Shown here: positions 1-47,624 of the stretch, piece by piece | How the letters are laid out: every line of letters begins with the position of its first letter | How positions within the stretch are numbered: the stretch's first letter is position 1 | Origin: Flavobacteriales bacterium | GTDB taxonomy: Bacteria > Bacteroidota > Bacteroidia > Flavobacteriales > Schleiferiaceae | NCBI GenBank assembly: GCA_017795025.1 | Contig: CP051243.1 | Span: 2,876,897 to 2,940,896 of the forward strand | DNA length: 64,000 nucleotides | Reading direction: 5' to 3' | Notes under the pieces: generated by a model | What the model saw: only the letters and a program-made list of their open reading frames with translations | What the model was told of the DNA's origin: nothing | The model's database searches: none | Made by a program: the position numbers and the translations under genes

Positions 1-969
1 TTTGACAAGAGCTGTCAATATGCTTACGATACAAACAACCAAGCCCATTTCCTTCATCGAGACATTGGAGCAATGAGCAAGGAAGAATTAGAGAGTCTTT
101 TCCCTGCTGGCTCGAAGAAAGTATTGATTGGATGTGCTCCATGCCAGCCTTTCTCTATTTTCAATCGGAGGAATGGAGGGAAGATGAGTAAGACGAATGA
201 TCAACGTTGGAAACTACTTTCTGCCTTTGCTGATCTTATTGTTAAGACTAAGCCGGAAATTATTTCCATGGAGAATGTTCCTCACCTCCTAGGATTTAAA
301 AGAGGGGAGGTTTTTAATGACTTCGTCTCTAAATTGGAAAATGCTGGATATCATGTTTCCTATGAAATTCATGACGCCCAGCATTATGGGGTCCCTCAAA
401 GGCGGCATAGATTAGTACTTTTAGGTTCACTTCATGGAGAAATAGAAATGATAGCTCCAACACATCGAGAGTGTCCCGTGACAGTGAGAGATGCAATCGG
501 TGAGCTGCAGCCAATTTCTGCGGGACAAATAGCACAAGATGATACTTTACACAGAGCACGAAATTTAACAGAACTTAGCTTAAAGCGAATAAGAGCTACT
601 CCTGAAGGGGGAGGCTGGCAAGATTGGGATGAGGAATTGGTTGCTGATTGTCATAAAAAGGAAGGAGGAAAAGCTTTTGGTAGTGCTTATGGTAGAATGA
701 GTTGGGATAAAGTAGCTCCGACCATGACGACTTATTGCATTGGTTATAACAATGGCCGTTTTGGACACCCAGATCAAGATAGACCAATATCCATAAGGGA
801 AGCAGCTCTGATTCAATCATTTCCTGCACACTATGATTTTGTAGACCCAGAGGTTGACTTTTCTTCAGGGCGATTAGCTAGGCATATTGGGAACGCTGTA
901 CCTGTCTTGCTCGGACAGGCCGTTGCAAAGAGCGTAATAGAACATATTCAAAAGATGGAGAATGCTTGA
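1..969 (+). CDS. DNA (cytosine-5-)-methyltransferase, 5'-truncated by window edge
   Basis: This gene methylates cytosine C5 in a specific DNA sequence using S-adenosylmethionine. The frame stays open from base 1, and the residues before the first internal ATG (base 73) still look like the Dcm N-terminal region, so the true start lies left of the window. Motif IV is visible as GCAPCQPFS (catalytic Cys codon at 142-144), motif VI as ENV (271-279), motif VIII as VPQRRHR and motif X as GNAVPVLLGQA near the C-terminus. The target-recognition region lies between VIII and X. Its stop overlaps the start of the next gene by 8 bases, which indicates an operon. The region is more AT-rich than the core genes to the right. 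No restriction endonuclease is visible; one may lie upstream. The family call is firm; the recognition site is unknown. Confidence 0.95.
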   Translation, partial: FDKSCQYAYDTNNQAHFLHRDIGAMSKEELESLFPAGSKKVLIGCAPCQPFSIFNRRNGGKMSKTNDQRWKLLSAFADLIVKTKPEIISMENVPHLLGFKRGEVFNDFVSKLENAGYHVSYEIHDAQHYGVPQRRHRLVLLGSLHGEIEMIAPTHRECPVTVRDAIGELQPISAGQIAQDDTLHRARNLTELSLKRIRATPEGGGWQDWDEELVADCHKKEGGKAFGSAYGRMSWDKVAPTMTTYCIGYNNGRFGHPDQDRPISIREAALIQSFPAHYDFVDPEVDFSSGRLARHIGNAVPVLLGQAVAKSVIEHIQKMENA

Positions 970-3085
970 TAGCCAGAAAACACTAAAATGGAGATTTGAT
1001 GTAAATACGTTTAGGTTGCTTGGCAGAGAGCTTATTACAGATCGAATCACCGCTGTTTATGAGCTGGTGAAAAATTGCTATGACGCTAATGCAAAGAAGG
1101 TAACAGTTTCTTTTGAAAATGTGGGGAGGAATGCAGAAGGAAAAGCTGTCATTACCATTGAAGACGATGGTCACGGAATGTCTTTTGAGGATATTCGCGA
1201 CAAATGGATGGTGGTAGGGACGGCTAGCAAGCGAGCTGAAACGTTTTCTCCAGCACCATTTAATCGAAGGTATGTAGGAGAAAAAGGTATTGGAAGATTT
1301 GCAGTTGATAAATTAGGGGGTAGGGTTCGTATTATCACAAAACAAGCCGGATCAGATAAAAGGCTTGTTGTGGTCATAGATTGGGATGAATACGAACGAT
1401 TATCAAGAGAACCTCAATTAGAGTTATTTACAGATGTTCCCAATGACTTCCATTGGGAAAAAGCTCCTGTGGAAGAACAAGGAACGATATTAGAGATTTC
1501 TTCAATTCCGGAGCATGAGGTGTGGACCGATTTAGATATTAGGAGACTGGAACGTGAATTAGAAAAAATAGTTTCACCATTTTTCCCTTTAAATCCCCCT
1601 TTCAACATTTGGATTAAATCCAATGAAAACCAAGAATTTAATAAGAAATTAATTCAAGCTGAAACAGTCAAGTTTTCGAGTCACGAGTTTTCAATTGGAT
1701 TCAACTCAGAGGAAGGGATTCAAGAAACTTTAACTTTTGATAAGGATAAAAGGGCTATTACAATTGCTGAGACCCCCTTAAGGTCTTTTGGGCCGGTTAA
1801 GCTTCATATTTTCTATTTTAATGAAAGGGCAAAAAAGAAATATAACGCAGCATATAAGAATGATGACTATCGAGTAGATGGGGTAAAAATTTATCGGGAT
1901 GGTTTAATAACTACGCCCTTTGCTGAATTCGAACAAAGTAGGGATAAAAAAAGAGACATTCTTGGAATAGAAAAACGAAGATGGTCAGGTGCTTTTGATA
2001 AAATTGGTACTCGAGAGGTTATAGGCATCCTTGAGATCACAAATGACGGAAATCCTAAAATTCGAGACGCTACTAATCGGCAAGACTTTGTTGATTGTAA
2101 AGAATATCGGGATTTAAAAGAGTTCATAATTGCACAACTTAATGTGCTTAGTGAACTTAAAAAGCATGAACGTGATGTTATCAAAGAGGAAGTAGATTCA
2201 GCCCTTTTAAAAGCTAACATAGAAATAAAGGAATTTGAATCTGTAATCGCAGACATCAAGAGAGAAAACCCTACCCTCAAAACTGCTTTACAGCCTTTAT
2301 TAAAGCAGGCAAAGCAAATCGACCGTTCACTAAAGAGAGGAATACAGCAACAACAAAAGGAGAGGCAAGAGCATGTTCGGAAAGAGAATATTTATTTGAG
2401 CTTAATGTCTCTTCAGGATTATGCAATCCACATTTCCCATGCTGTAAGAACCGCTTTAGGGAAAGTCAAACGCAGAGCTGAATTTTTCAAGGATAATTTT
2501 CCTAACACAAAGTATGATGATTTATTCGCTGATTATTCAATTGAGATTTATGAAGAAATGGCTAATCTCAACAGAATAATCGACTTCATGCTAAGTTATG
2601 CGGGATCTAACATTGACATGGAGGACTTTAATGTTCGAGACCTATTGATTGATTTATTTGAACGAGCTTATAAGCCTGAATTCGAATCTGAAAATATTCA
2701 TGTGCAAGTTGAGATTAAAGACAACTTTATCATTCATGCAAATAAAAAGTTCTTTGAAGATATCATAGAGAACCTCATTTCCAATTCCGTAAAAGCCTTA
2801 AGAAATGAGAGTAATAAGATTATTAAGTGTACCGGTTTTATTAAGAATGATCATTTTATCCTCTACTTCTCTGATAATGGTGAAGGTATTGCACCAGGAG
2901 ATGAGGAAAAAATATTTGAGATGTACCATACAACTACGGCAGACCTAGGAGGTGCAGGAGTAGGACTTTATATCGTGAAAACACGTGCTGAGTCCTTAAA
3001 AGGAAGTATAAAAGTTATCCGCAGTGAGTTTGCTCCAAAGGGAGCAACATTTAAAATATCATTTCCATTTAATAAAGAAGTATGA
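962..3085 (+). CDS. Dual-GHKL ATPase (MORC/Hsp90-like N-terminus, histidine-kinase-like C-terminus)
   Basis: This 707-residue protein has two ATP-binding modules of the GHKL superfamily. The N-terminal one (about 20-210) has the N-box Glu34/Asn38/Asp41, a DDGHGM G1 box and a GEKGIGRFA G2 box, in the style of MORC, MutL and Hsp90. A charged helical stretch (about 390-480) leads to an H-box-like SHAVRTAL with His493. The C-terminal module has an N-box around Asn604/Asn608, SDNGEGI (637-643) and GGAGVGLYIV, as in histidine kinases. The usual acidic residue after the phospho-His is Ala494. No membrane segment or signal peptide is seen, so it should be cytosolic. It overlaps the methyltransferase upstream and the receiver-like gene downstream (ATGA). 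A role as ATP-driven sensor in a modification-linked defence system is inferred. Confidence 0.85.
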   Translation: MLDSQKTLKWRFDVNTFRLLGRELITDRITAVYELVKNCYDANAKKVTVSFENVGRNAEGKAVITIEDDGHGMSFEDIRDKWMVVGTASKRAETFSPAPFNRRYVGEKGIGRFAVDKLGGRVRIITKQAGSDKRLVVVIDWDEYERLSREPQLELFTDVPNDFHWEKAPVEEQGTILEISSIPEHEVWTDLDIRRLERELEKIVSPFFPLNPPFNIWIKSNENQEFNKKLIQAETVKFSSHEFSIGFNSEEGIQETLTFDKDKRAITIAETPLRSFGPVKLHIFYFNERAKKKYNAAYKNDDYRVDGVKIYRDGLITTPFAEFEQSRDKKRDILGIEKRRWSGAFDKIGTREVIGILEITNDGNPKIRDATNRQDFVDCKEYRDLKEFIIAQLNVLSELKKHERDVIKEEVDSALLKANIEIKEFESVIADIKRENPTLKTALQPLLKQAKQIDRSLKRGIQQQQKERQEHVRKENIYLSLMSLQDYAIHISHAVRTALGKVKRRAEFFKDNFPNTKYDDLFADYSIEIYEEMANLNRIIDFMLSYAGSNIDMEDFNVRDLLIDLFERAYKPEFESENIHVQVEIKDNFIIHANKKFFEDIIENLISNSVKALRNESNKIIKCTGFIKNDHFILYFSDNGEGIAPGDEEKIFEMYHTTTADLGGAGVGLYIVKTRAESLKGSIKVIRSEFAPKGATFKISFPFNKEV

Positions 3086-3696
3086 TTGAGCCAGTACAAT
3101 TACTCATTATCCATGACGATATGAGCGAAAATGATCCGCTCATAATTACACTAAAAGAAAGATATGGGGGTGATAACGTCAAACTTGAAAAAAGGTCAAG
3201 CAGAGGCTTGAGTTACATACACAATCACCTAATCAGCAAATTGATTGTTCTTTTAGACTTTGACTTGGGAAAGGGAGAGCCACATGCTCCAGAGGTGATA
3301 GAAGAAATCAGAAAGGAAACCTCTTTAATATACGTCATCATATTGACAGCAAAACAGTTTTCAAGCATTTCTCATGAAGCACTGATAAAATTTATCAACA
3401 ATGAAGCACTTGGTATAATTCAGAGCACAGCAGACATTAAAGATATTGTAAGTCTGGTTGATAAGGCGGCGCATGAGCTAGATACAAGAGTTGACTGTGT
3501 TTTGGAACAATGGATTGCTAAAAGACAAAAAGGGGAAAGAGAGAAGCCTTATTTAACTACGAGGTCTGGAGAAACCTACACTTTAGATGATCTCATAATT
3601 GAGATTAGAAAAGAGACTGAATTAGGTAAGCGCATGGAGAGAGGTATACTTCAGTTGGCTATTGAGCAATTAACAAATGGTGATCGCAGGTTATAA
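3082..3696 (+). CDS. Receiver-domain-like protein with C-terminal helical extension
   Basis: The first ~125 residues resemble a response-regulator receiver domain: acidic pair Asp12/Asp13, candidate phospho-acceptor Asp59 in LLDFDL, and Thr88 in ILTAK. The conserved Lys of the receiver active site appears to be Gln113, so signalling may be atypical. The C-terminal ~75 residues are charged and helical, with a TYTLDDLIIEIRKET-type segment, and are not a recognisable DNA-binding domain. The start overlaps the upstream stop (ATGA), and the stop shares a base with the next start (TAATG). The probable role is to relay a signal from the GHKL protein to the protease-like protein downstream; this is inferred from order and domains. 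Confidence 0.75.
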   Translation: MIEPVQLLIIHDDMSENDPLIITLKERYGGDNVKLEKRSSRGLSYIHNHLISKLIVLLDFDLGKGEPHAPEVIEEIRKETSLIYVIILTAKQFSSISHEALIKFINNEALGIIQSTADIKDIVSLVDKAAHELDTRVDCVLEQWIAKRQKGEREKPYLTTRSGETYTLDDLIIEIRKETELGKRMERGILQLAIEQLTNGDRRL

Positions 3697-4343
3697 TGAT
3701 TGAATTCGTAATTGCTTATGATGAACGCGATGATGTTCTCGGGTCTTATTTTCAAGAATGTAGAAATAATCTAGTTTCTGTAATCTCAGACCTACAAGAA
3801 CTAGATCCCATTTTAAATGATGTACCCGCTAATAAGTGTAATAGAGCGTATTTAGATTATGTACTTGCCAACCTCCGAGATAAACCTTTTATAATTGCGG
3901 TGTATTGTCACGGAAATCCGAAACAGTTAGTAGTGAATGGTTCACTTTTTATTGATTCAGATGAAGACAATGAGTATTTCAAAAAAACGTTTTTCTACAC
4001 TAATAGTTGTTCAAGTGGAAAAACACTTGGACCGAAATTAATTGAACAGAATTGTAGCGTATTCATTGGGTTCGAAAGGAACGTTGAATCCTTAATGGGG
4101 GATTACTACGAAGAGCTATCTATTAATTGCGACAATTTTGGAATCACAGCATTTCTTACACAAGAAATCACTGCATTTGAGGCATACGAGCAAATGATTA
4201 AAAACTATACTCAGAAAATACAAAATCTACAGAAGACCGGTGATATCTTAAGAGCTGGAATTTTTATAAATGCACGTGAAGCATTAGTGTTCCACGGTAA
4301 TAAGGACCTTACGAAGGCAGATTTACAAATACCCCTTGGATGA
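3696..4343 (+). CDS. Caspase/CHAT-like cysteine protease candidate
   Basis: This 215-residue protein has the landmarks of the caspase-haemoglobinase (CD clan) fold: a hydrophobic strand ending in YCHG (His72-Gly73), then a strand ending in NSCSSG (Cys105), and a following VFIGFE strand. The His-Gly and Cys spacing matches CHAT/caspase-like peptidases, in which such genes serve as effectors of bacterial conflict systems. There is no signal peptide or membrane segment. It is the fourth gene of the island operon and is translationally coupled to the receiver-like gene. The substrate is unknown; a partner's C-terminal tail is one possibility. The fold assignment rests on motifs only and would need a structural comparison. 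Confidence 0.65.
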   Translation: MIEFVIAYDERDDVLGSYFQECRNNLVSVISDLQELDPILNDVPANKCNRAYLDYVLANLRDKPFIIAVYCHGNPKQLVVNGSLFIDSDEDNEYFKKTFFYTNSCSSGKTLGPKLIEQNCSVFIGFERNVESLMGDYYEELSINCDNFGITAFLTQEITAFEAYEQMIKNYTQKIQNLQKTGDILRAGIFINAREALVFHGNKDLTKADLQIPLG

Positions 4344-40377: not shown

Positions 40378-41928
40378 ATGAATCGATCCGAAAAAATTCG
40401 AAACCTGATTAAGGACCTCACCACCGGACTGTACGAACGTGATGAGGTGATGAAATTGGCCTTATTGGCGGCGGTATCAGGCGAAAGCCTTTTTTTATTA
40501 GGTCCTCCAGGAGTAGGCAAGAGTATGGTGGCGCGCCGATTAAAATATGCATTTAAAGATGCACAATCCTTCGAATACCTAATGACGCGCTTTTCGACCC
40601 CTGAAGAAGTTTTTGGGCCGGTGTCGATTAAAAAGTTGAAGGAAGAAGATAAGTACGAGCGTAAGACGGAGCAATATATGCCAGGGGCTAATATTGTATT
40701 CCTTGATGAAATTTGGAAGTCTAGCTCTTCGATTCAAAATACCTTACTCACCATTATAAATGAAAAGGTTTACCGCAATGGAGAGCAGGAGTTCCCAGTA
40801 GATTTAAAAGGGCTAATAACAGCTAGCAACGAGCTCCCCCCCGAAGGTGAAAACTTTGGTCCCTTGTACGACCGCCTCCTGCTTCGGTATCACCTCCATG
40901 AGATAAAGGATGAGCAGGTTTTTTTAAAAATGATCACTCAAACCGAGGAGGTGTATTCTGATCCCGTTGCTGAGGAGCATAAAATAAGTGCTGGCGACCT
41001 TAGCGAATGGCAAGAGCATATTGATGCCGTTAGGGTAGAAGATGAGGTTTTAAGCCTTATTCGCATTATTCGCGATAAGCTTCAAGAGTATAATAAGAAG
41101 CAGGATAATCCTAGTTTGGAAATTAAGGTATTTGATCGACGTTGGAAGAAGATTATCCGCCTCTTGCGAACCTCCGCCTTCTTAAACGGTCGCGATAAAG
41201 TAGACTTGATGGACTGCTTTTTAATGCGCCATGCCCTTTGGAATCAACCCCAACAAATCGAGGTTATTGAGGAGATTTTAGCCGAAACTATTCGTAAACA
41301 CGGCTACAGCATCGCGGTTGGCTTACCGATGTTACGCAAGGAGATTCGGGAGTTTGCCGAAGAAGTTGATCAGGAGGTGCGCATCAAAATTGCCCGTACC
41401 GAAGAGGTGCTTCGTCCGGTAGAAGAGGAATACTACGAATTGCAAAAGAATGGCGCTTCCTTCGCGGGGAAATACCTTACGGTGAAGGATTACAATAAAC
41501 TCCAGCACTCCGAGGTTCCGGTGCTAAATTTATACGACGATGAATTTAAATTGGTCTCTCGTCTCAGCGCCGAGCGGACCGATGCCCCATTTGCTATTCG
41601 CTTAAAGCATAATGCCCAAATTCATCAATTACAATTGCGTACCTATCAGAAGGAGCGCTATGATTATCACTTTAAACCGCCGCATCCCTTGGTTCGCAAC
41701 TACTGGGAGGAACGCCATGAGAAGCTCGAAGCCTACTTGCAAAAACAATTAGCGCGTTTAGAAAAAGAGAAGCCCGCCGAACTGCAGCGTGGTTCTGAGC
41801 ACCTTTTTATTGATGAAGGGCTTTTTCCAATTGTAGAAGCGAATCACAGCGAAGTGGAAGAAGCGCTAAAGTCACTGCAGTTGCAACTGGAGAAAACCCA
41901 GCATGCCTACGACCGACAATTAAACTAG
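40378..41928 (+). CDS. RavA-type MoxR AAA+ ATPase
   Basis: The protein is a 516-residue AAA+ ATPase whose start (ERDEVMKLALLAAVSGESLFLLG), Walker A GPPGVGKS (42-49), Walker B VFLDEIWKSSSSIQNTLL and long C-terminal region match RavA. E. coli RavA works with the vWA protein ViaA and modulates respiratory/Fe-S enzymes. No ViaA-like gene is adjacent; the vWA gene 800 bases downstream is a secreted protein and so not an obvious partner. Confidence 0.85.
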   Translation: MNRSEKIRNLIKDLTTGLYERDEVMKLALLAAVSGESLFLLGPPGVGKSMVARRLKYAFKDAQSFEYLMTRFSTPEEVFGPVSIKKLKEEDKYERKTEQYMPGANIVFLDEIWKSSSSIQNTLLTIINEKVYRNGEQEFPVDLKGLITASNELPPEGENFGPLYDRLLLRYHLHEIKDEQVFLKMITQTEEVYSDPVAEEHKISAGDLSEWQEHIDAVRVEDEVLSLIRIIRDKLQEYNKKQDNPSLEIKVFDRRWKKIIRLLRTSAFLNGRDKVDLMDCFLMRHALWNQPQQIEVIEEILAETIRKHGYSIAVGLPMLRKEIREFAEEVDQEVRIKIARTEEVLRPVEEEYYELQKNGASFAGKYLTVKDYNKLQHSEVPVLNLYDDEFKLVSRLSAERTDAPFAIRLKHNAQIHQLQLRTYQKERYDYHFKPPHPLVRNYWEERHEKLEAYLQKQLARLEKEKPAELQRGSEHLFIDEGLFPIVEANHSEVEEALKSLQLQLEKTQHAYDRQLN

Positions 41929-41979
41929 TCCGGGCCTCTATTTTGGAGAATGGAGTCTAAGGTTCAAAGAGTCCTGTAG

Positions 41980-42588
41980 ATGTACCTAAAAATTTACCCT
42001 TGCCTAATTTTTCTAGTCTTCGCTTGCCATGAACTAACCGCTCAGGAGCCATGGTCCTCCATAAAAGGTGTGGTAAGGGAAAGCACCGATTCAAGCGAAA
42101 TGGTAGGCGCTAAAATTGAAGTTCTTAATCAGGATAGCGTCCTAGTGCATGGTACCCACACTGATTTTGAGGGCAGGTTTAAGCTCTCCCCTCTACCTAT
42201 TGGAACTTATAATCTCAAAGTTTCTTCCCCTACCTATAACACGATTTACTTAAAGGGCGTACTGCTTAAGGAGAGCTACCCTTATGTCCAGTACTTTTAT
42301 CTCCAAAGGCAGGAGGGGGAAGTGAAGGTAAGAGTTGAGCGTTATCAGGAGCCCCAAATTGCCTCTCCCGGAATACGATTGGTCACTGCAGAAGAAGTGG
42401 CGAAAATGGCAGTTAGGGAATTGGATTCAATCAATGAGGGCGGAAAAGACAGTCTTAAGCAGGGCTCGGAGCAAAGCAATTGTCTCATTCGTTGCGTTTT
42501 ATCCTATCCTCCGGATAGCAGCAACTATGGCATATCTCAAGAGTTTATGCGGGGCAGTCCCAGTCGGACGATTTTCACTTTTCATTAA
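41980..42588 (+). CDS. Short secreted protein with carboxypeptidase-regulatory-like domain, degenerate paralogue of the next gene
   Basis: A signal peptide ends near TAQ (about residue 22). Residues about 25-110 form a CarboxypepD-regulatory-like beta-sandwich (IKGVVRESTDS, GTHTDFEGRF, LPIGTYNLKV). A segment LVTAEEVAKMAVRELDSI then matches VTSAASIQRMAVRDITSV of the following gene, after which the similarity is lost and the protein ends. It looks like a shortened and diverged copy of the downstream gene's N-terminal third. Whether it is functional is unclear. Confidence 0.55.
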   Translation: MYLKIYPCLIFLVFACHELTAQEPWSSIKGVVRESTDSSEMVGAKIEVLNQDSVLVHGTHTDFEGRFKLSPLPIGTYNLKVSSPTYNTIYLKGVLLKESYPYVQYFYLQRQEGEVKVRVERYQEPQIASPGIRLVTAEEVAKMAVRELDSINEGGKDSLKQGSEQSNCLIRCVLSYPPDSSNYGISQEFMRGSPSRTIFTFH

Positions 42589-42718
42589 TTTTTTTGACAA
42601 GAAAAGGCAACTAAAGCAGCTGCCTCAAGTCTATAAAGTAACAGGCCCAAATACCTTTTCTGCAGATAAGGAGTGTCGAGGGAAAAACCCTCAGACTATT
42701 AATTCTAATTGCTTCGCC

Positions 42719-44962
42719 ATGAAGAAGAACACTCCTTTTTATTTCGTGCTATTACTCTTTTTTGTAATCAGCCCAAACATACAAGCTCAACAAGCCCAAG
42801 GAAAAATTCGAGGGAAAGTTGTGGATGCTCAAACTAAGGAAGAATTGCCTTTCACGAATATTAGGCTATTAAAAGACAATGTAGTTATTGCCGGCGCCAC
42901 AACCGATATGGATGGTAAATACGAGATAAATCCCGTAGCACCGGAAACCTATGATCTAAAAGCAGATTTTGTAGGCTACACCACTACCACCATAGAAGAT
43001 ATTCAGGTAAGCCCCAATCAAATCACCCAGCAAGATATTGAACTGCAACTGAGCAGTGAACTACTGATGGAAGTGGTTTTATCGTACAATGCACCCCTTA
43101 TTGATAAAAATAAATCATCAAAAGTGACTAGTGCGGCTAGTATCCAGCGCATGGCGGTTAGAGATATTACCTCGGTTGCCTCACAAGCAGCTGGCGTAAC
43201 CACCGATGCCAATGGTAATACCAATATTCGTGGTGCCCGCGGCGGAGCACAGATTTATTTTATAGACGGGGTTAAAGTGCGAGGAACAGTAAGCTTACCG
43301 CAAGCGGCCATCGCACAAGTAGAGGTTATTAGCGGAGGTTTACCTGCCCAGTATGGCGGCGGTGAAGTGCCCGACCCCAGTCGACCCGAGAACCAAGAAA
43401 TTAGTCAAGACCAAACCGATTATGCCCTGCCTTCTCAAGAAGATATCTTCAGCCGGACCTCATCAGCAGTTTATGAGTATAATTCGCAAACCCAAACTTG
43501 GTCAAACTGGACCCCTGTTCCCAGTTCGGAAAGCGTTAATGATGGCTCCACCGCTTTTGCGGGGGAATATTACAAGTCGATTCCCGAGAATGATTTCTTG
43601 GGAAGCTTTTACCAGCCGCTTTCCACTTTTGGGGCGGATGTGGATGTCGCCTCCTATGCCAATGTGCGACGCATGTTAAAGAGTGGAAGTATGCCACATC
43701 CGGATGCGGTTCGCCTAGAAGAAATGATTAATTACTTTCAGTACGATTATCCCGAACCCAAACGTGGGGAGGTGTTTTCGGTAACCATGGACCAGCGCAC
43801 CTGTGATTGGAACCCCAAGCATCAGCTTTTACGTATTGGTCTTAAAACAAAAGCATTACCTCAAAAAGATTTACCGCCCAGCAATCTGGTTTTCCTAATT
43901 GATGTGAGTGGTAGCATGGGGTCATCGGATAAACTGCCTTTACTGCAATCGGCTTTAAAGATTATGGTAAAGCAGCTCGATCCCGAAGACCGAGTGGCCA
44001 TAGTAGTTTATGCCTCGGCCAGCGGCTTGGTGCTTGAGTCTACTCTAGCGGCTAACCAACAGAAAATATTGGAAGCTATTAATCAGCTACACGCCGGGGG
44101 GTCTACCGCCGGAGGTGCCGGAATTCAATTAGCTTATAAAGAAGCAGTACGCCATTTTATAAAGAAGGGTAATAATCGGGTAATACTCGCCACCGACGGC
44201 GATTTTAACGTGGGTGTTTCCTCCGATGCCGGTTTAGTGGAGCTGATAGAAGAGAAACGTGAAAGTGGGGTGTTCTTGAGTGTTTTAGGTTTTGGAACTG
44301 GAAATTACCAAGATGCTAAGATGGAGCAATTAGCGGATCATGGCAATGGCAATTATGCATATATCGACGGTTTACTAGAAGCCCGCAAAGTATTAGCTAC
44401 TGAGCTGGGTTCAAACTTGCATGTAGTCGCCAAGGATACCAAGTTTCAAATTGAATTTAATCCCCAGAAGGTGAGTGCCTATCGCTTAATTGGCTACGAA
44501 AACCGCCTTTTAGCAGCCGAGGATTTTGACGATGACACCAAGGACGCGGGTGATATTGGCGCGGGCCATACCGTTACGGCCATTTATGAAATCATCCCTC
44601 GCATTCCGGAGGCAGATTCAATTTGGGTGGAAGAGCCACGCTTGCGCTACCAAGATAAAGCCCTAAGCGAGGAAGCCTATGGCGAGGAATTGGCCCTACT
44701 GAAAATTCGATACAAGGAACCCGATGCGCGTAAAAGCAAATTGAAAATCTATCCGGTTCGCGAAAATATGAGCACCGACCCTGACTTCGCCTTTCTCTCG
44801 GCGGTGCTTCAATACGGCTTGTTGATGCGGCAAAGTGAATATGCCGGCAACAGCAGCTTGGAGTCGGCCATCGCCCTGGCAGAGCGGCACCTGGGCCCGG
44901 ACCCGCATGGCTATCGCCGAGAGTTTGTACAGCTCTGTAAATTAGCTAAGGATTTACAGTAG
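42719..44962 (+). CDS. Secreted vWA protein with carboxypeptidase-regulatory and TonB-plug-like domains
   Basis: The order is: signal peptide (about 1-27), CarboxypepD-regulatory domain (about 32-115), a TonB-plug-like domain with NIRGARGGAQIYFIDGVKVRG and AQYGGGEV (about 140-215), then a YfbK-type region with the vWA N-terminal block (ANVRRMLKSGSMPHPDAVRLEEMINYF), a vWA domain with MIDAS Asp395-Val-Ser-Gly-Ser and a C-terminal YfbK-like tail. No beta-barrel is present, so this is not a transporter. The frame is open to 42335, but the ATG at 42719 begins the signal peptide. Probably periplasmic or surface-bound. Confidence 0.85.
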   Translation: MKKNTPFYFVLLLFFVISPNIQAQQAQGKIRGKVVDAQTKEELPFTNIRLLKDNVVIAGATTDMDGKYEINPVAPETYDLKADFVGYTTTTIEDIQVSPNQITQQDIELQLSSELLMEVVLSYNAPLIDKNKSSKVTSAASIQRMAVRDITSVASQAAGVTTDANGNTNIRGARGGAQIYFIDGVKVRGTVSLPQAAIAQVEVISGGLPAQYGGGEVPDPSRPENQEISQDQTDYALPSQEDIFSRTSSAVYEYNSQTQTWSNWTPVPSSESVNDGSTAFAGEYYKSIPENDFLGSFYQPLSTFGADVDVASYANVRRMLKSGSMPHPDAVRLEEMINYFQYDYPEPKRGEVFSVTMDQRTCDWNPKHQLLRIGLKTKALPQKDLPPSNLVFLIDVSGSMGSSDKLPLLQSALKIMVKQLDPEDRVAIVVYASASGLVLESTLAANQQKILEAINQLHAGGSTAGGAGIQLAYKEAVRHFIKKGNNRVILATDGDFNVGVSSDAGLVELIEEKRESGVFLSVLGFGTGNYQDAKMEQLADHGNGNYAYIDGLLEARKVLATELGSNLHVVAKDTKFQIEFNPQKVSAYRLIGYENRLLAAEDFDDDTKDAGDIGAGHTVTAIYEIIPRIPEADSIWVEEPRLRYQDKALSEEAYGEELALLKIRYKEPDARKSKLKIYPVRENMSTDPDFAFLSAVLQYGLLMRQSEYAGNSSLESAIALAERHLGPDPHGYRREFVQLCKLAKDLQ

Positions 44963-45212: not shown

Positions 45213-46880
45213 ATGAAAAACAAGTACTTATCCCTACTCGCGGTGGTCTTTCTGGCTGTCGCTTGTACCAAACCAGACGAAATCCTGGATGATTTTCAGG
45301 TACACATTTCCCCCATTTTTTACTCTTACGTAGTAGAAGTTGAAGTGGAGGATTTAGTTGATCCCAGCACTCCCATTACCGAAAATGTAGCCGTGTCTAT
45401 CATCGGAAAAGATGGCGATGTGATTTACAACATCGATGGAACGAAAAATTTCGAAATCAACTTTGGGACCTTACAGTTAATGATCCCAAGAGATGCAGAG
45501 CCTACCCCAGGTGATCCGGTTGAGTTTACCGTAAAACTTACGGCTAATAACTATCAGTCTACCGAGGTGCCTTTCGCTATTAACGAAGGCGATTTCTTTG
45601 CCGCAGATGTGGCTCGGATGCTGAACTTAAATAACCTGCCAACAAGTATTGGTAGCAAAACTGCCAATGGTGGTATTGACCCAAACACCAATACCTTGGC
45701 TCAGCCACTTGTGGTTAATGCGGGTTCTCAAGACAGTGTGGCCAAAATCAAGATTACTATTCCAACCGATGTGAAGTTCTTAGATGCCGACGGTAACGAA
45801 ATCGTAGGTAAAAAAGGAGGCACCGGTCTTAATGTAAACGTGCTTAGCTTATCCGATTCTTCCGAGGCTTCGCAGCAGGCTTTACCTGGCGGAACTGGAC
45901 TTATCCAATTAGTAGCTAATGATCAGGGCGGTGTTGATACCGTTTTATTAGAGCAAGGAAGCACCTTTAATATCACTATGGATTTGGACGGAACTCCCGT
46001 TCGTGGATTTAGCGGTGGTAAAACTTCAGGTGGGGTAACTACGCGTTTCCCAGTTCCTGCAGATTCTTGGAATGCGGAATTTGACCGTGCTTACCAAGAA
46101 GGTGATTCTATCTCCTTGATGAGCTTGTCAGAAGGTGATGCCAACTGGTCGCCAGATGCTCGCTCTTTTGTAGTTAAGAAAGATCCAGTTACGGATGAAT
46201 TGTATGTAGATGGAAACATCACGCACCTTTCATGGTGGCGTTGGTGGTGGCGTCGTTGGTGGAGACCAACTTACTACTACCGCGGAATTGGTGCCTATTA
46301 TGTAGGAGCCAACGGTCAGCCTGATGGCTTTGTTAGTGGCCGCGTTTATGGTCGTTTATCGTACTTCCGTTACGGAAGATGGCGCTCTTGCTACCTTTAT
46401 ATTCGCGGAAACTTCGGTCCTAACTGGACCCGTAACCCACGCCGTTTCTGGAGAACCACCAGCCCCTATAATCCGGCTGTATTCTCTTACACTACCTTCT
46501 CACCATCGGTATACAACCTAAGCACCGAAGTGCGCGGAAATTATCGAGTATTGAAAATTCAAGCCAAAGAGCAACCCGTTTCGATTGGTTACCGCTTGTA
46601 TTGTGGAAGCAGCAACACCCTAGTAGATCCACCAGCTGGTGTGCGTATGTTCTATCGTGAGAATGGTTCAGGTGATGCTTGGTCAACCCTTTACACCTTT
46701 ACATCTCAAAACCAAGGTATTCGCTTTACCTCTTTCCCACAGCTTAAAGATCAAACGTTCTATGATTTCAAAGCACAGTGGAACGATGTAGAGCAAGAGA
46801 CCTTGAATGTTCAGGTAATTGACGGTCGTATTTATGATGTGACCTTGCCTAATGATGCATGTAGTGCCTTAGGAATCTAA
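45213..46880 (+). CDS. Lipoprotein with Trp/Arg-rich block
   Basis: A lipoprotein signal is visible (MKNKYLSLLAVVFLAVAC, Cys18). Residues about 30-330 are beta-rich and polar, with no recognised family. The central part has an extraordinary WWRWWWRRWWR run (residues 341-351, bases 46233-46265), followed by about 90 residues very rich in Tyr, Arg, Trp and Phe; a last domain (about 450-550) looks Ig-like. The frame extends to 44979, but the ATG at 45213 fits the signal and follows the terminator. The 215 bases between terminator and start hold no other gene. It is probably anchored in the outer membrane and co-transcribed with the barrel gene that follows after 24 bases. Confidence 0.75.
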   Translation: MKNKYLSLLAVVFLAVACTKPDEILDDFQVHISPIFYSYVVEVEVEDLVDPSTPITENVAVSIIGKDGDVIYNIDGTKNFEINFGTLQLMIPRDAEPTPGDPVEFTVKLTANNYQSTEVPFAINEGDFFAADVARMLNLNNLPTSIGSKTANGGIDPNTNTLAQPLVVNAGSQDSVAKIKITIPTDVKFLDADGNEIVGKKGGTGLNVNVLSLSDSSEASQQALPGGTGLIQLVANDQGGVDTVLLEQGSTFNITMDLDGTPVRGFSGGKTSGGVTTRFPVPADSWNAEFDRAYQEGDSISLMSLSEGDANWSPDARSFVVKKDPVTDELYVDGNITHLSWWRWWWRRWWRPTYYYRGIGAYYVGANGQPDGFVSGRVYGRLSYFRYGRWRSCYLYIRGNFGPNWTRNPRRFWRTTSPYNPAVFSYTTFSPSVYNLSTEVRGNYRVLKIQAKEQPVSIGYRLYCGSSNTLVDPPAGVRMFYRENGSGDAWSTLYTFTSQNQGIRFTSFPQLKDQTFYDFKAQWNDVEQETLNVQVIDGRIYDVTLPNDACSALGI

Positions 46881-46904: not shown

Positions 46905-47624
46905 ATGAAAAAGTTAGTTTTTACACTTCTAGCCGGTTTGGTCTTCCTAGGACCATTGGCAGCACAGGATGCTACCCCTACCGATTCTAGCGCTACTACT
47001 CCTCAAGGGGAGGATAAGTATATGATGTGGCAAAATCGTCATGCTTTGGCCTTAAGTGCCGGATTACCTGGCTTTGGCGTAGAGTATGCCTATAACCTCA
47101 ATCGTAGTTTAAACTTAAGAGCAGGCTTTTTATCATTTGCTTTTAACGACTTTAACACTGATCTCGATATCAGCGGACAGTCGGTGAATGTAAATGCCAA
47201 CCTAAGCTCACAGGTTTACGACTTATTTTTAGAGTATCAGCCATCTTCAAACAGTGCCTTTAAATTGGTAGCCGGTTTGGGTTATTTAAATAATGTTGGG
47301 GTAAACACCTTGGTATTGTTAAATAATGATATCGGCTTTGGCGATTTGAACATCGACAACGAGGAAATTGGTGAAATTGACATCAATGTTTCTTGGACGG
47401 CTTTGGCACCTTATGTAGGTTTTGGCTTCGGTCGCGCAGTACCTAAAAAGCGTGTAGGTTTCGGCTTAGAGTTCGGAACCTATTATGCTGGAGGTCCAGA
47501 TGTAGCAATCACAGCTACCGAGATGCTTGAGAACACTTCAGAAGAGGCTGCTGAGCTTGAAGAAAACTTAGCTTCTTATGCTTGGGTGCCCCGCGTTATG
47601 GCGCGATTGGCTATCAAACTATAA
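46905..47624 (+). CDS. Putative outer-membrane beta-barrel protein
   Basis: A signal peptide (ends near LAAQ, about residue 21) is followed by amphipathic strands typical of small porin-like Bacteroidota proteins (HALALSAGLPGFGVEYAYNL, SLNLRAGFLSFAF, YDLFLEYQP, APYVGFGFGR, VGFGLEFGTYYAGG), ending with VMARLAIKL, a terminal strand. It has 239 residues. The function is unknown; the preceding lipoprotein is a likely partner. A terminator follows. Confidence 0.7.
   Translation: MKKLVFTLLAGLVFLGPLAAQDATPTDSSATTPQGEDKYMMWQNRHALALSAGLPGFGVEYAYNLNRSLNLRAGFLSFAFNDFNTDLDISGQSVNVNANLSSQVYDLFLEYQPSSNSAFKLVAGLGYLNNVGVNTLVLLNNDIGFGDLNIDNEEIGEIDINVSWTALAPYVGFGFGRAVPKKRVGFGLEFGTYYAGGPDVAITATEMLENTSEEAAELEENLASYAWVPRVMARLAIKL

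What the first reader, a model, noticed from the sequence alone, without database searches (positions are those of the whole stretch)
46233..46500. Trp/Arg-rich block in a lipoprotein
WWRWWWRRWWR is followed by about 90 residues very rich in aromatic and Arg residues. This resembles cationic aromatic membrane-active peptides but sits within a lipoprotein. A role in polysaccharide, DNA or membrane binding is possible. The downstream barrel gene may be its partner.
Basis: partly seen in the sequence, partly recalled or inferred. Interest (0 to 1): 0.5.

Follow-up and report, generated by a model that had tools for sequence, protein, structure and literature searches.

The report
Cationic Trp/Arg segment after GAIN-like domain
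A Bacteroidota bacterium makes a lipoprotein in which a strongly positively charged tryptophan/arginine stretch begins at the spot that matches the self-cleavage site of animal adhesion receptors, suggesting a bacterial relative of that receptor architecture whose charged part can be tested for binding and for self-cleavage.

Summary
In detail: WWRWWWRRWWR is encoded at 46233-46265 and opens a 113-residue block (26% aromatic, 15% Arg, 3% Asp/Glu, net +16) in a 555-aa lipoprotein (45213-46880). It is not a free-standing peptide. It starts directly after His338-Leu339-Ser340, the end of a domain whose weak model best matches GAIN and ZU5 folds: five of the top six VIA rows (Z 4.7-6.8; sixth unidentified, 5.8; next row 3.0). 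Leu339 pairs with the residue just before the published cut in GPR110 and latrophilin-1. By sequence the domain is related to FAM171A2 (E 1.4e-5). The Trp/Arg version occurs in 6 of 7 genomes of the genus. A paralogue from inside the Trp/Arg clade has lost every Trp in the block but keeps +20, so charge rather than Trp is what is kept. A CarO-like barrel gene adjoins 26 of 31 family genes, supporting the suggested partnership. Best reading: a probably surface-exposed lipoprotein whose GAIN/FAM171-like domain presents a cationic beta-module that binds an anionic partner. Self-cleavage at HL|S is possible but unproven, and this genus may lack a helper aromatic. New variant of a known kind.

The parts
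45213..45266 (+). Signal peptide and lipobox of the lipoprotein, predicted lipidated Cys18 (45264-45266); followed by T-K-P-D-E, near the Bacteroidetes surface-export signal C-X-K-(D/E)2
   Evidence: Sequence; signal consensus from passages of PMC5080379; the match is imperfect (a Pro intervenes)
45321..45632 (+). N-terminal carboxypeptidase-D-regulatory / transthyretin-like beta domain, residues 37-140
   Evidence: Model m1cc709dde9e3; VIA Z 8.3 over 80 residues, rmsd 2.3, to 5aq0_B, second row of the list
45624..46229 (+). GAIN/ZU5-like (FAM171-related) domain, residues 138-339; Trp312 (46146-46148) is the one residue invariant in 26 aligned domains
   Evidence: Model mb88a8b486e00; VIA rows; profile hit to FAM171A2 9y6n_A E 1.4e-5; A5 conservation
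46224..46232 (+). His338-Leu339-Ser340, H-X-S/T triplet at the position of the GPCR proteolysis site
   Evidence: H-[LF]-[ST] in 24 of 31 family genes; Leu339 pairs with GPR110 residue 566 and latrophilin-1 residue 837, next to the published H565/T567 and H836/T838
46233..46265 (+). WWRWWWRRWWR, residues 341-351, at the place of the Stachel / tethered-agonist strand
   Evidence: low confidence in the model (pLDDT about 30)
46233..46262 (+). 12-bp tandem repeat (2.5 copies) under the W/R run
   Evidence: Tandem Repeats Finder, score 46
46233..46571 (+). Cationic aromatic block, residues 341-453, net +16; strands 374-386, 389-401, 434-441, 444-451 predicted at low confidence
46572..46877 (+). 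C-terminal beta-sandwich domain, residues 454-555 (FN3-like is my label), with Cys464 and Cys550 invariant in 20 relatives
   Evidence: VIA Z 6.5 over 87 residues to 4iyk; invariant columns
46905..47624 (+). CarO-like outer-membrane beta-barrel gene, conserved neighbour
   Evidence: A6 profile to 4fuv_A E 1.3e-8, 4rl9_A 1e-7, 4rlb_A 5.6e-6; Pfam OMP_b-brl in 9 of 12 relatives at E up to 1; adjacency 26 of 31

Best explanation
The finding is the start of a cationic beta-module in a lipoprotein. Order of parts: lipid anchor, carboxypeptidase-regulatory-like domain, GAIN/ZU5-like domain related to FAM171, an H-L-S triplet, the Trp/Arg strand with the rest of the positively charged block, and a C-terminal beta-sandwich; a CarO-like barrel is encoded next to it. 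Most likely mechanism (inferred): the lipoprotein is displayed on the outer membrane beside its barrel, and the GAIN-like domain presents the net +16 to +21 block, which binds an anionic partner (lipopolysaccharide, exopolysaccharide, or an acidic protein surface such as the barrel). Trp adds affinity in the Trp/Arg versions, but net positive charge is the property that selection keeps. Shown by computation: gene structure, composition, family, the FAM171 link, barrel adjacency, and loss of Trp with retention of charge in a paralogue. Supported at moderate strength: the GAIN/ZU5-like fold and the register of HLS. Inferred: surface exposure, the ligand, and contact with the barrel. Open: whether the chain is cut between Leu339 and Ser340.
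For: Charge: N part net -17 to -30 and block +16 to +21 in all eight close genus proteins. Tandem paralogues L005/L015 are 78% (N), 33% (block) and 88% (C) identical, L004/L016 79%, 34% and 88%; yet the four blocks are +18, +20, +17 and +21. Random replacement of the differing sites reached the observed +20 in 32 of 20,000 simulations for L004/L015 and 49 of 20,000 for WIN/L015. The pair L015/L016, with no Trp in the block, groups with L004/L005 (support 98/98) inside the Trp/Arg clade. Cationic blocks also occur in L017 (+22), L067 (+15) and L052 (+9). Domain: VIA rows 8hc0_A GPR110 Z 6.8, 4d8o ankyrin-B ZU5 6.5, 8vti_A latrophilin-3 5.6, 4dlq_A latrophilin-1 5.5, 7crv_A NLRP1 FIIND 4.7; FAM171A2 E 1.4e-5; relative L061 passes the Pfam FAM171 cut-off, 32.5 against 31.2 bits. 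Pair: barrel next to 26 of 31 family genes, in both gene orders.
Against: Both models are weak (mean pLDDT 64.9 and 56.5) and most of the block is below 50. Foldseek alone gave no significant match for the domain (best E 0.19), Z under 8 can reflect a common arrangement, and one row among the GAIN/ZU5 rows (9fqr_Hn, Z 5.8) is unidentified. The other charge simulations are weaker: 401, 947, 1577 and 819 of 20,000 for WIN/L008, WIN/L006, WIN/L007 and L006/L007. Related L009 (-11) and L010 (0) do without a cationic block. The 14 barrels examined are acidic (net -8 to -20) whatever the charge of the block, so no co-variation supports a block-barrel contact. Pfam FAM171 hits no member of the window's own branch tested (P0001, L009, L010, L017, L018, L023). 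Five of 31 family genes and all six f6 relatives lack a barrel neighbour; one genome (G019) has two lone lipoprotein genes and a lone barrel. No ligand was identified.
Confidence: 0.5

Rival explanations
1. Self-cleaving, Stachel-like device. The GAIN-like domain cuts HL|S; the C-terminal fragment starts S-WWRWWWRRWWR and stays docked as the last strand; loss of the lipid-anchored fragment exposes a cryptic cationic peptide that inserts into a membrane or acts on the barrel.
For: H-[LF]-[ST] in 24 of 31 family genes and in all six f6 relatives. Leu339 pairs with GPR110 566 and latrophilin-1 837, next to H565/T567 (PMC7060178) and H836/T838 (PMC13062082). Homologous domains without the triplet exist (FAM171A2 QLG; seven family genes), so it is not needed to make the domain. 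ZU5-superfamily autoproteolysis in bacterial surface proteins was proposed in PMC3482391.
Against: Seven of 31 family genes lack the triplet. HLS alone is not enough: BAI2 has HLS and was not cleaved, and an aromatic partner of the His matters (PMC13062082). In the strand about 33 residues upstream, 13 of 26 aligned domains read W-S-Y and 18 of 26 have Tyr or Phe at the third place, but the six rows of this branch of the genus read M-S-L or L-S-L; that this is the partner position is my inference. A Trp/Arg strand is unlike the hydrophobic Stachel of animals (recalled). No cleavage data.
Confidence: 0.16
2. Intramolecular clamp. The cationic block packs on the acidic N-terminal half (net about -25), or is simply a stable salt-bridge and aromatic-rich beta domain; no external ligand.
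For: Opposite charges are segregated within one chain in all eight genus proteins and in L017 and L067.
Against: The N part is about as acidic in relatives with neutral or acidic blocks (L009, L010, L011, L054), so it does not need a cationic partner.
Confidence: 0.2
3. Sequence drift: slippage of a TGG/CGT repeat produced a low-complexity run that is tolerated and has no function.
For: 12-bp tandem repeat under the run; the block is the fastest-changing large part of the protein.
Against: Kept in 6 of 7 genus genomes, low dN/dS in close pairs, charge kept where Trp was lost.
Confidence: 0.08
4. One reading: a cationic antimicrobial-like or DNA-binding segment in its own right.
For: Composition only.
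Against: Embedded between two modelled domains, with strands predicted in the block; Trp is absent from the block of the paralogue.
Confidence: 0.04

Closest known systems
FAM171 family ectodomain (Pfam PF10577; FAM171A2 structure 9y6n)
   Same: Sequence-detectable homology of the middle domain, ending at the same spot (E 1.4e-5); relative L061 above the Pfam cut-off
   Different: QLG in place of HLS; what follows QLGYW was not seen; FAM171 proteins are animal membrane proteins (recalled). The window protein itself has no Pfam hit
GAIN domain of adhesion GPCRs (GPR110 8hc0, latrophilin-1 4dlq, latrophilin-3 8vti) and ZU5/FIIND domains (ankyrin-B 4d8o, NLRP1 7crv)
   Same: Overall fold by VIA-align and H-X-S/T triplet in register with the GPS
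   Different: No 7TM part, lipid anchor at the N-terminus, Trp/Arg strand instead of the hydrophobic Stachel (recalled), no ZU5 profile hit; cleavage untested
Bacterial ZU5-superfamily surface proteins (PMC3482391, passages read)
   Same: Bacterial surface proteins with a putative autoproteolytic ZU5-superfamily domain
   Different: There described in large RHS/SpvB proteins and other large surface proteins and marked by a CxH motif; here a 555-aa lipoprotein with HLS, a cationic block and a barrel neighbour
CarO porin family
   Same: The adjacent barrel family matches CarO-type structures (E 1.3e-8)
   Different: P0002 scores 43.3 bits against a cut-off of 300 for the NCBIfam CarO equivalog: related barrel, not CarO

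Membership tests
FAM171 N-terminal domain family (PF10577) | Profile match over the curated cut-off | tested here: inconclusive
   Window protein: no hit. Of 18 relatives scanned one by one, 12 hit at E 7.1e-8 to 0.065 and one of these (L061, 32.5 bits) passes the 31.2-bit cut-off; L009, L010, L017, L018, L020, L023 do not hit
FAM171 N-terminal domain family (PF10577) | Homology of the family profile to a FAM171 chain of known structure | tested here: met
   A5 profile to 9y6n_A FAM171A2 E 1.4e-5 over 119 positions; next row E 0.037
GAIN/ZU5 superfamily | GAIN/ZU5 fold | tested here: inconclusive
   Five of the top six VIA rows are GAIN/ZU5/FIIND chains, Z 4.7-6.8, next row 3.0; but model pLDDT 56.5 and no significant Foldseek row
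GAIN/ZU5 superfamily | H-X-S/T triplet at the end of the domain, in register with the GPS | tested here: met
   HLS 338-340; 24 of 31 family genes; pairing with residues 566 and 837
GAIN/ZU5 superfamily | Sequence-profile match to ZU5 (PF00791) | tested here: not met
   No match in the lipoprotein genes of the nine genomes searched; no ZU5 or GPS row in the Pfam scans
GAIN/ZU5 superfamily | Autoproteolysis at X|S/T | not testable with these tools
   Needs protein
Surface-exposed Bacteroidetes lipoproteins (LES) | C-X-K-(D/E)2 after the lipidated Cys | tested here: inconclusive
   C-T-K-P-D-E: same residues with an inserted Pro (consensus from PMC5080379)
Cationic antimicrobial-type peptide | Free or releasable short amphipathic peptide | not testable with these tools
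   Encoded inside a 555-aa lipoprotein; release would need the unproven cleavage
CarO porin (adjacent barrel) | NCBIfam CarO equivalog cut-off | tested here: not met
   43.3 bits against 300

The most novel reading that the evidence does not exclude
A bacterial counterpart of the adhesion-GPCR principle: a self-cleaving GAIN-like domain on an outer-membrane lipoprotein keeps a Trp/Arg tethered peptide hidden as its last strand; pulling off the lipid-anchored half bares S-WWRWWWRRWWR, which then acts on the membrane or on the CarO-like barrel encoded next door.
Probability: 0.1. Interest if true: 0.85.

Novelty: new variant of a known kind. Interest (0 to 1): 0.52.

Why it matters
If right, a domain best known from animal adhesion receptors (GAIN) and from FAM171 proteins sits in a small bacterial lipoprotein-barrel pair that should be simple to express. 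That gives a clean place to ask whether H-X-S/T domains in Bacteroidota cleave themselves, and what the part behind the cut is for. The paralogue pair offers a natural experiment: Trp was lost from the block while positive charge was kept.

Tried and rejected
Pfam and NCBIfam on the window protein gave nothing. A first scan of genome contigs with P0001 alone found no relative; the alignment query found seven loci. The ZU5 profile PF00791 gave two matches below cut-off in nine genomes, neither in a lipoprotein gene. Whole-protein Foldseek rows were mostly multi-domain Ig/FN3, pilin and S-layer chains with low TM-scores and were not used; for the domain model Foldseek gave no significant row. 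VIA row 9fqr_Hn (Z 5.8) was not identified and is not used; FAM171A2 does not appear in that list, which excludes nothing. The Trp/Arg motif elsewhere: a degenerate DNA pattern for about H-[LF]-S-W-x-R-W matched 20 of 395 phylum genomes and 7 of 88 family genomes, but of the fetched loci only the six of this genus encode the domain (one of the 21 phylum places was not fetched). Co-variation of barrel charge with block charge was looked for and not seen (the script's motif filter found 14 barrels in the 23 loci given and missed nine). Paper searches for bacterial GAIN, ZU5 or FAM171 lipoproteins and for Trp/Arg lipoproteins listed only PMC3482391 as clearly relevant to bacteria; the listings were capped at 20 titles or fewer and cover one open-access library, so this is no proof of absence.

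Rows dropped and counts: the 31 family genes are the 25 full-length f1 genes (without the own-genome relic, L055 at a contig edge, and fragment L056) plus G047, G302 (two), G357 (two) and G394; the second G357 and G302 genes were read. Without a barrel neighbour: L009, L017, L023, L024, L051. Without H-X-S/T: L018, L020, L021, L023, L024, L065, L105. The f6 relatives L070-L075 are counted apart (0 of 6 with a barrel hit in flanks of about 0.5-1.1 kb). A5 uses 26 of the 33 domain slices; near-duplicates L005, L016, L024, L051, L072, L074, L075 were left out. The slices were cut at the triplet by a motif list, so L020, L021, L065 and L105, which lack it, are not in A5, and A5's 24 of 26 His must not be read as an unbiased rate. 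In A1, 15 of 20 rows have it. The tree uses 28 proteins. On rechecking, the confidence in the self-cleavage rival was lowered from 0.18 to 0.16 because of the corrected triplet count.

Full report
What is there. The ORF at 45213-46880 encodes a 555-residue lipoprotein. WWRWWWRRWWR is residues 341-351 (46233-46265). It opens a 113-residue block with 10 of the protein's 14 Trp, 17 of its 28 Arg and few acidic residues. Nothing else in the 46 window ORFs of 200 aa or more approaches it (next highest 3 Trp in 11 residues, against 7), and no shuffle of the protein did (0 of 20,000). The DNA stretch TGGTGGCGNTGGTGGTGG occurs once in the 3.44-Mb genome. A 12-bp tandem repeat lies under the run.

Relatives. 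Of 59 related genomes (own included), 12 hold a match to the protein at E 0.001; with a profile, 17 of 88 genomes of the family at E 1e-5 and 27 of 395 of the order sample at E 1e-8. The seven named loci are MAGs titled Flavobacteriales, Bacteroidetes, Cryomorphaceae or Owenweeksia. Within the genus, 6 of 7 genomes keep the Trp/Arg block; the seventh (G004) has only a divergent member with a block of net -3. In distant relatives the parts on either side of the block align while the block does not.

Where the block begins. H-[LF]-[ST] stands at this place in 24 of 31 family genes and in the six f6 relatives. In the 26 domains aligned in A5 (which were cut at the triplet, so not an unbiased sample), Trp312 is invariant, His is present in 24 and Ser or Thr in 26. 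Distant relatives read, for example, HFSWWNCD or HLSWWNLD. So the H-[LF]-S-W-W core is old, and the genus replaced what followed by R/W-rich sequence.

What the domain is. Modelled alone (residues 138-456, mean pLDDT 56.5), its VIA-align rows are the GAIN domain of GPR110 (Z 6.8, 132 residues, rmsd 3.5), ankyrin-B ZU5 (6.5), an unidentified axonemal chain (5.8), GAIN of latrophilin-3 (5.6) and latrophilin-1 (5.5), and NLRP1 FIIND (4.7); the next row is 3.0. The last aligned model residue is 202, i.e. Leu339, paired with GPR110 566 and latrophilin-1 837. Published triplets are H565/T567 for GPR110 and H836/T838 for rat latrophilin-1, entry 4dlq (passages read). I did not check that 8hc0 uses the numbering of the GPR110 paper, and the latrophilin-3 end (854) fits its site only from recall. 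The alignment ends there partly because the following low-confidence stretch was trimmed; the pairing of the last residues does not depend on that. By sequence, the domain profile finds FAM171A2 (E 1.4e-5), where HLS reads QLG. Foldseek alone found nothing significant, so I rate the fold as likely, not proven.

Other parts. Residues 37-140 resemble the carboxypeptidase-D regulatory domain (Z 8.3), and residues 454-552 a beta-sandwich (Z 6.5 to 4iyk). The Cys is followed by T-K-P-D-E, near the surface-export signal (passages read).

Charge is kept, tryptophan is not. In two genomes a second lipoprotein-barrel pair follows the first (L005 then L015; L004 then L016). The tandem copies are 78-79% and 88% identical on either side, 33-34% in the block. 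L015 and L016 have no Trp in the block but net +20 and +21, and group with L004/L005 inside the Trp/Arg clade (98/98; the root is a midpoint root). Chance retention of +20 was 32 of 20,000 simulations for L004/L015 and 49 for WIN/L015; pairs of Trp/Arg versions are less striking (401 to 1577 of 20,000). Other cationic blocks exist in L017, L067 and, weaker, L052, while L009 and L010 have none.

The neighbour. A barrel related to CarO adjoins 26 of 31 family genes: downstream in the Trp/Arg branch, L010 and L052, upstream in the others. The exceptions are L009, L017, L023, L024 and L051; L051 follows another lipoprotein gene that has a barrel. Genome G019 has two lone lipoprotein genes and a lone barrel elsewhere. 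Upstream of the pair in this genome lie a MoxR-type ATPase and a vWA/YfbK gene; judged by eye from the protein ends, a similar vWA gene also precedes the pair in L038, L039 and L040 but not in L041.

Reading. The most economical account is a probably surface-exposed lipoprotein whose GAIN/FAM171-like domain presents a cationic module to an anionic partner, working with a barrel. Self-cleavage at HL|S is an attractive addition. It is backed by the triplet in 24 of 31 family genes and its register with the GPS. It is weakened by seven family genes without it, by BAI2, which has HLS without cleavage, and by M-S-L or L-S-L in this genus where 13 of 26 domains have W-S-Y. PMC3482391 (passages read) already proposed autoproteolytic ZU5-superfamily domains in bacterial surface proteins, so the kind is known; the Trp/Arg strand behind the triplet, the lipoprotein setting and the barrel pairing are what I did not find described.

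Noticed in passing
G000:C1:238250-238444 (minus), loci L003/L062: A relic of a second copy in the same genome: only about the last 65 residues of the C-terminal domain match, in a 111-aa open frame.
   Followed up: partly
window 73-4343: Cytosine methyltransferase followed by a 707-aa protein with GHKL/histidine-kinase ATPase parts at both ends, a 204-aa protein and a 215-aa protein without family hits; the first 200 residues of the 707-aa protein match a PADLOC type II restriction enzyme model (E 8.7e-16). Possibly a defence island; the 215-aa protein looks caspase/CHAT-like to me by eye only.
   Followed up: partly
window 40378-44962: bpMoxR-type ATPase gene, and nearer the lipoprotein-barrel pair a gene that joins carboxypeptidase-regulatory, TonB-plug and vWA/YfbK domains (start near 42719); this fusion looks unusual to me.
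   Followed up: partly
L017 (G019:C25:8552-10141), residues after HLS: A relative without a barrel neighbour whose block is Lys/Arg-rich and of different character (19 Lys, 11 Arg in 101 residues, net +22).
   Followed up: partly
G066:C346:5721-9084 (L061, L051): A barrel followed by two lipoprotein genes in a row; the second has no Trp after HLS (HLSVHAA).
   Followed up: no
L105 2122-4128 (G302:C17): A 669-aa distant member next to a barrel, without H-X-S/T in a matching place but with a long Arg-rich stretch in its middle (read).
   Followed up: no
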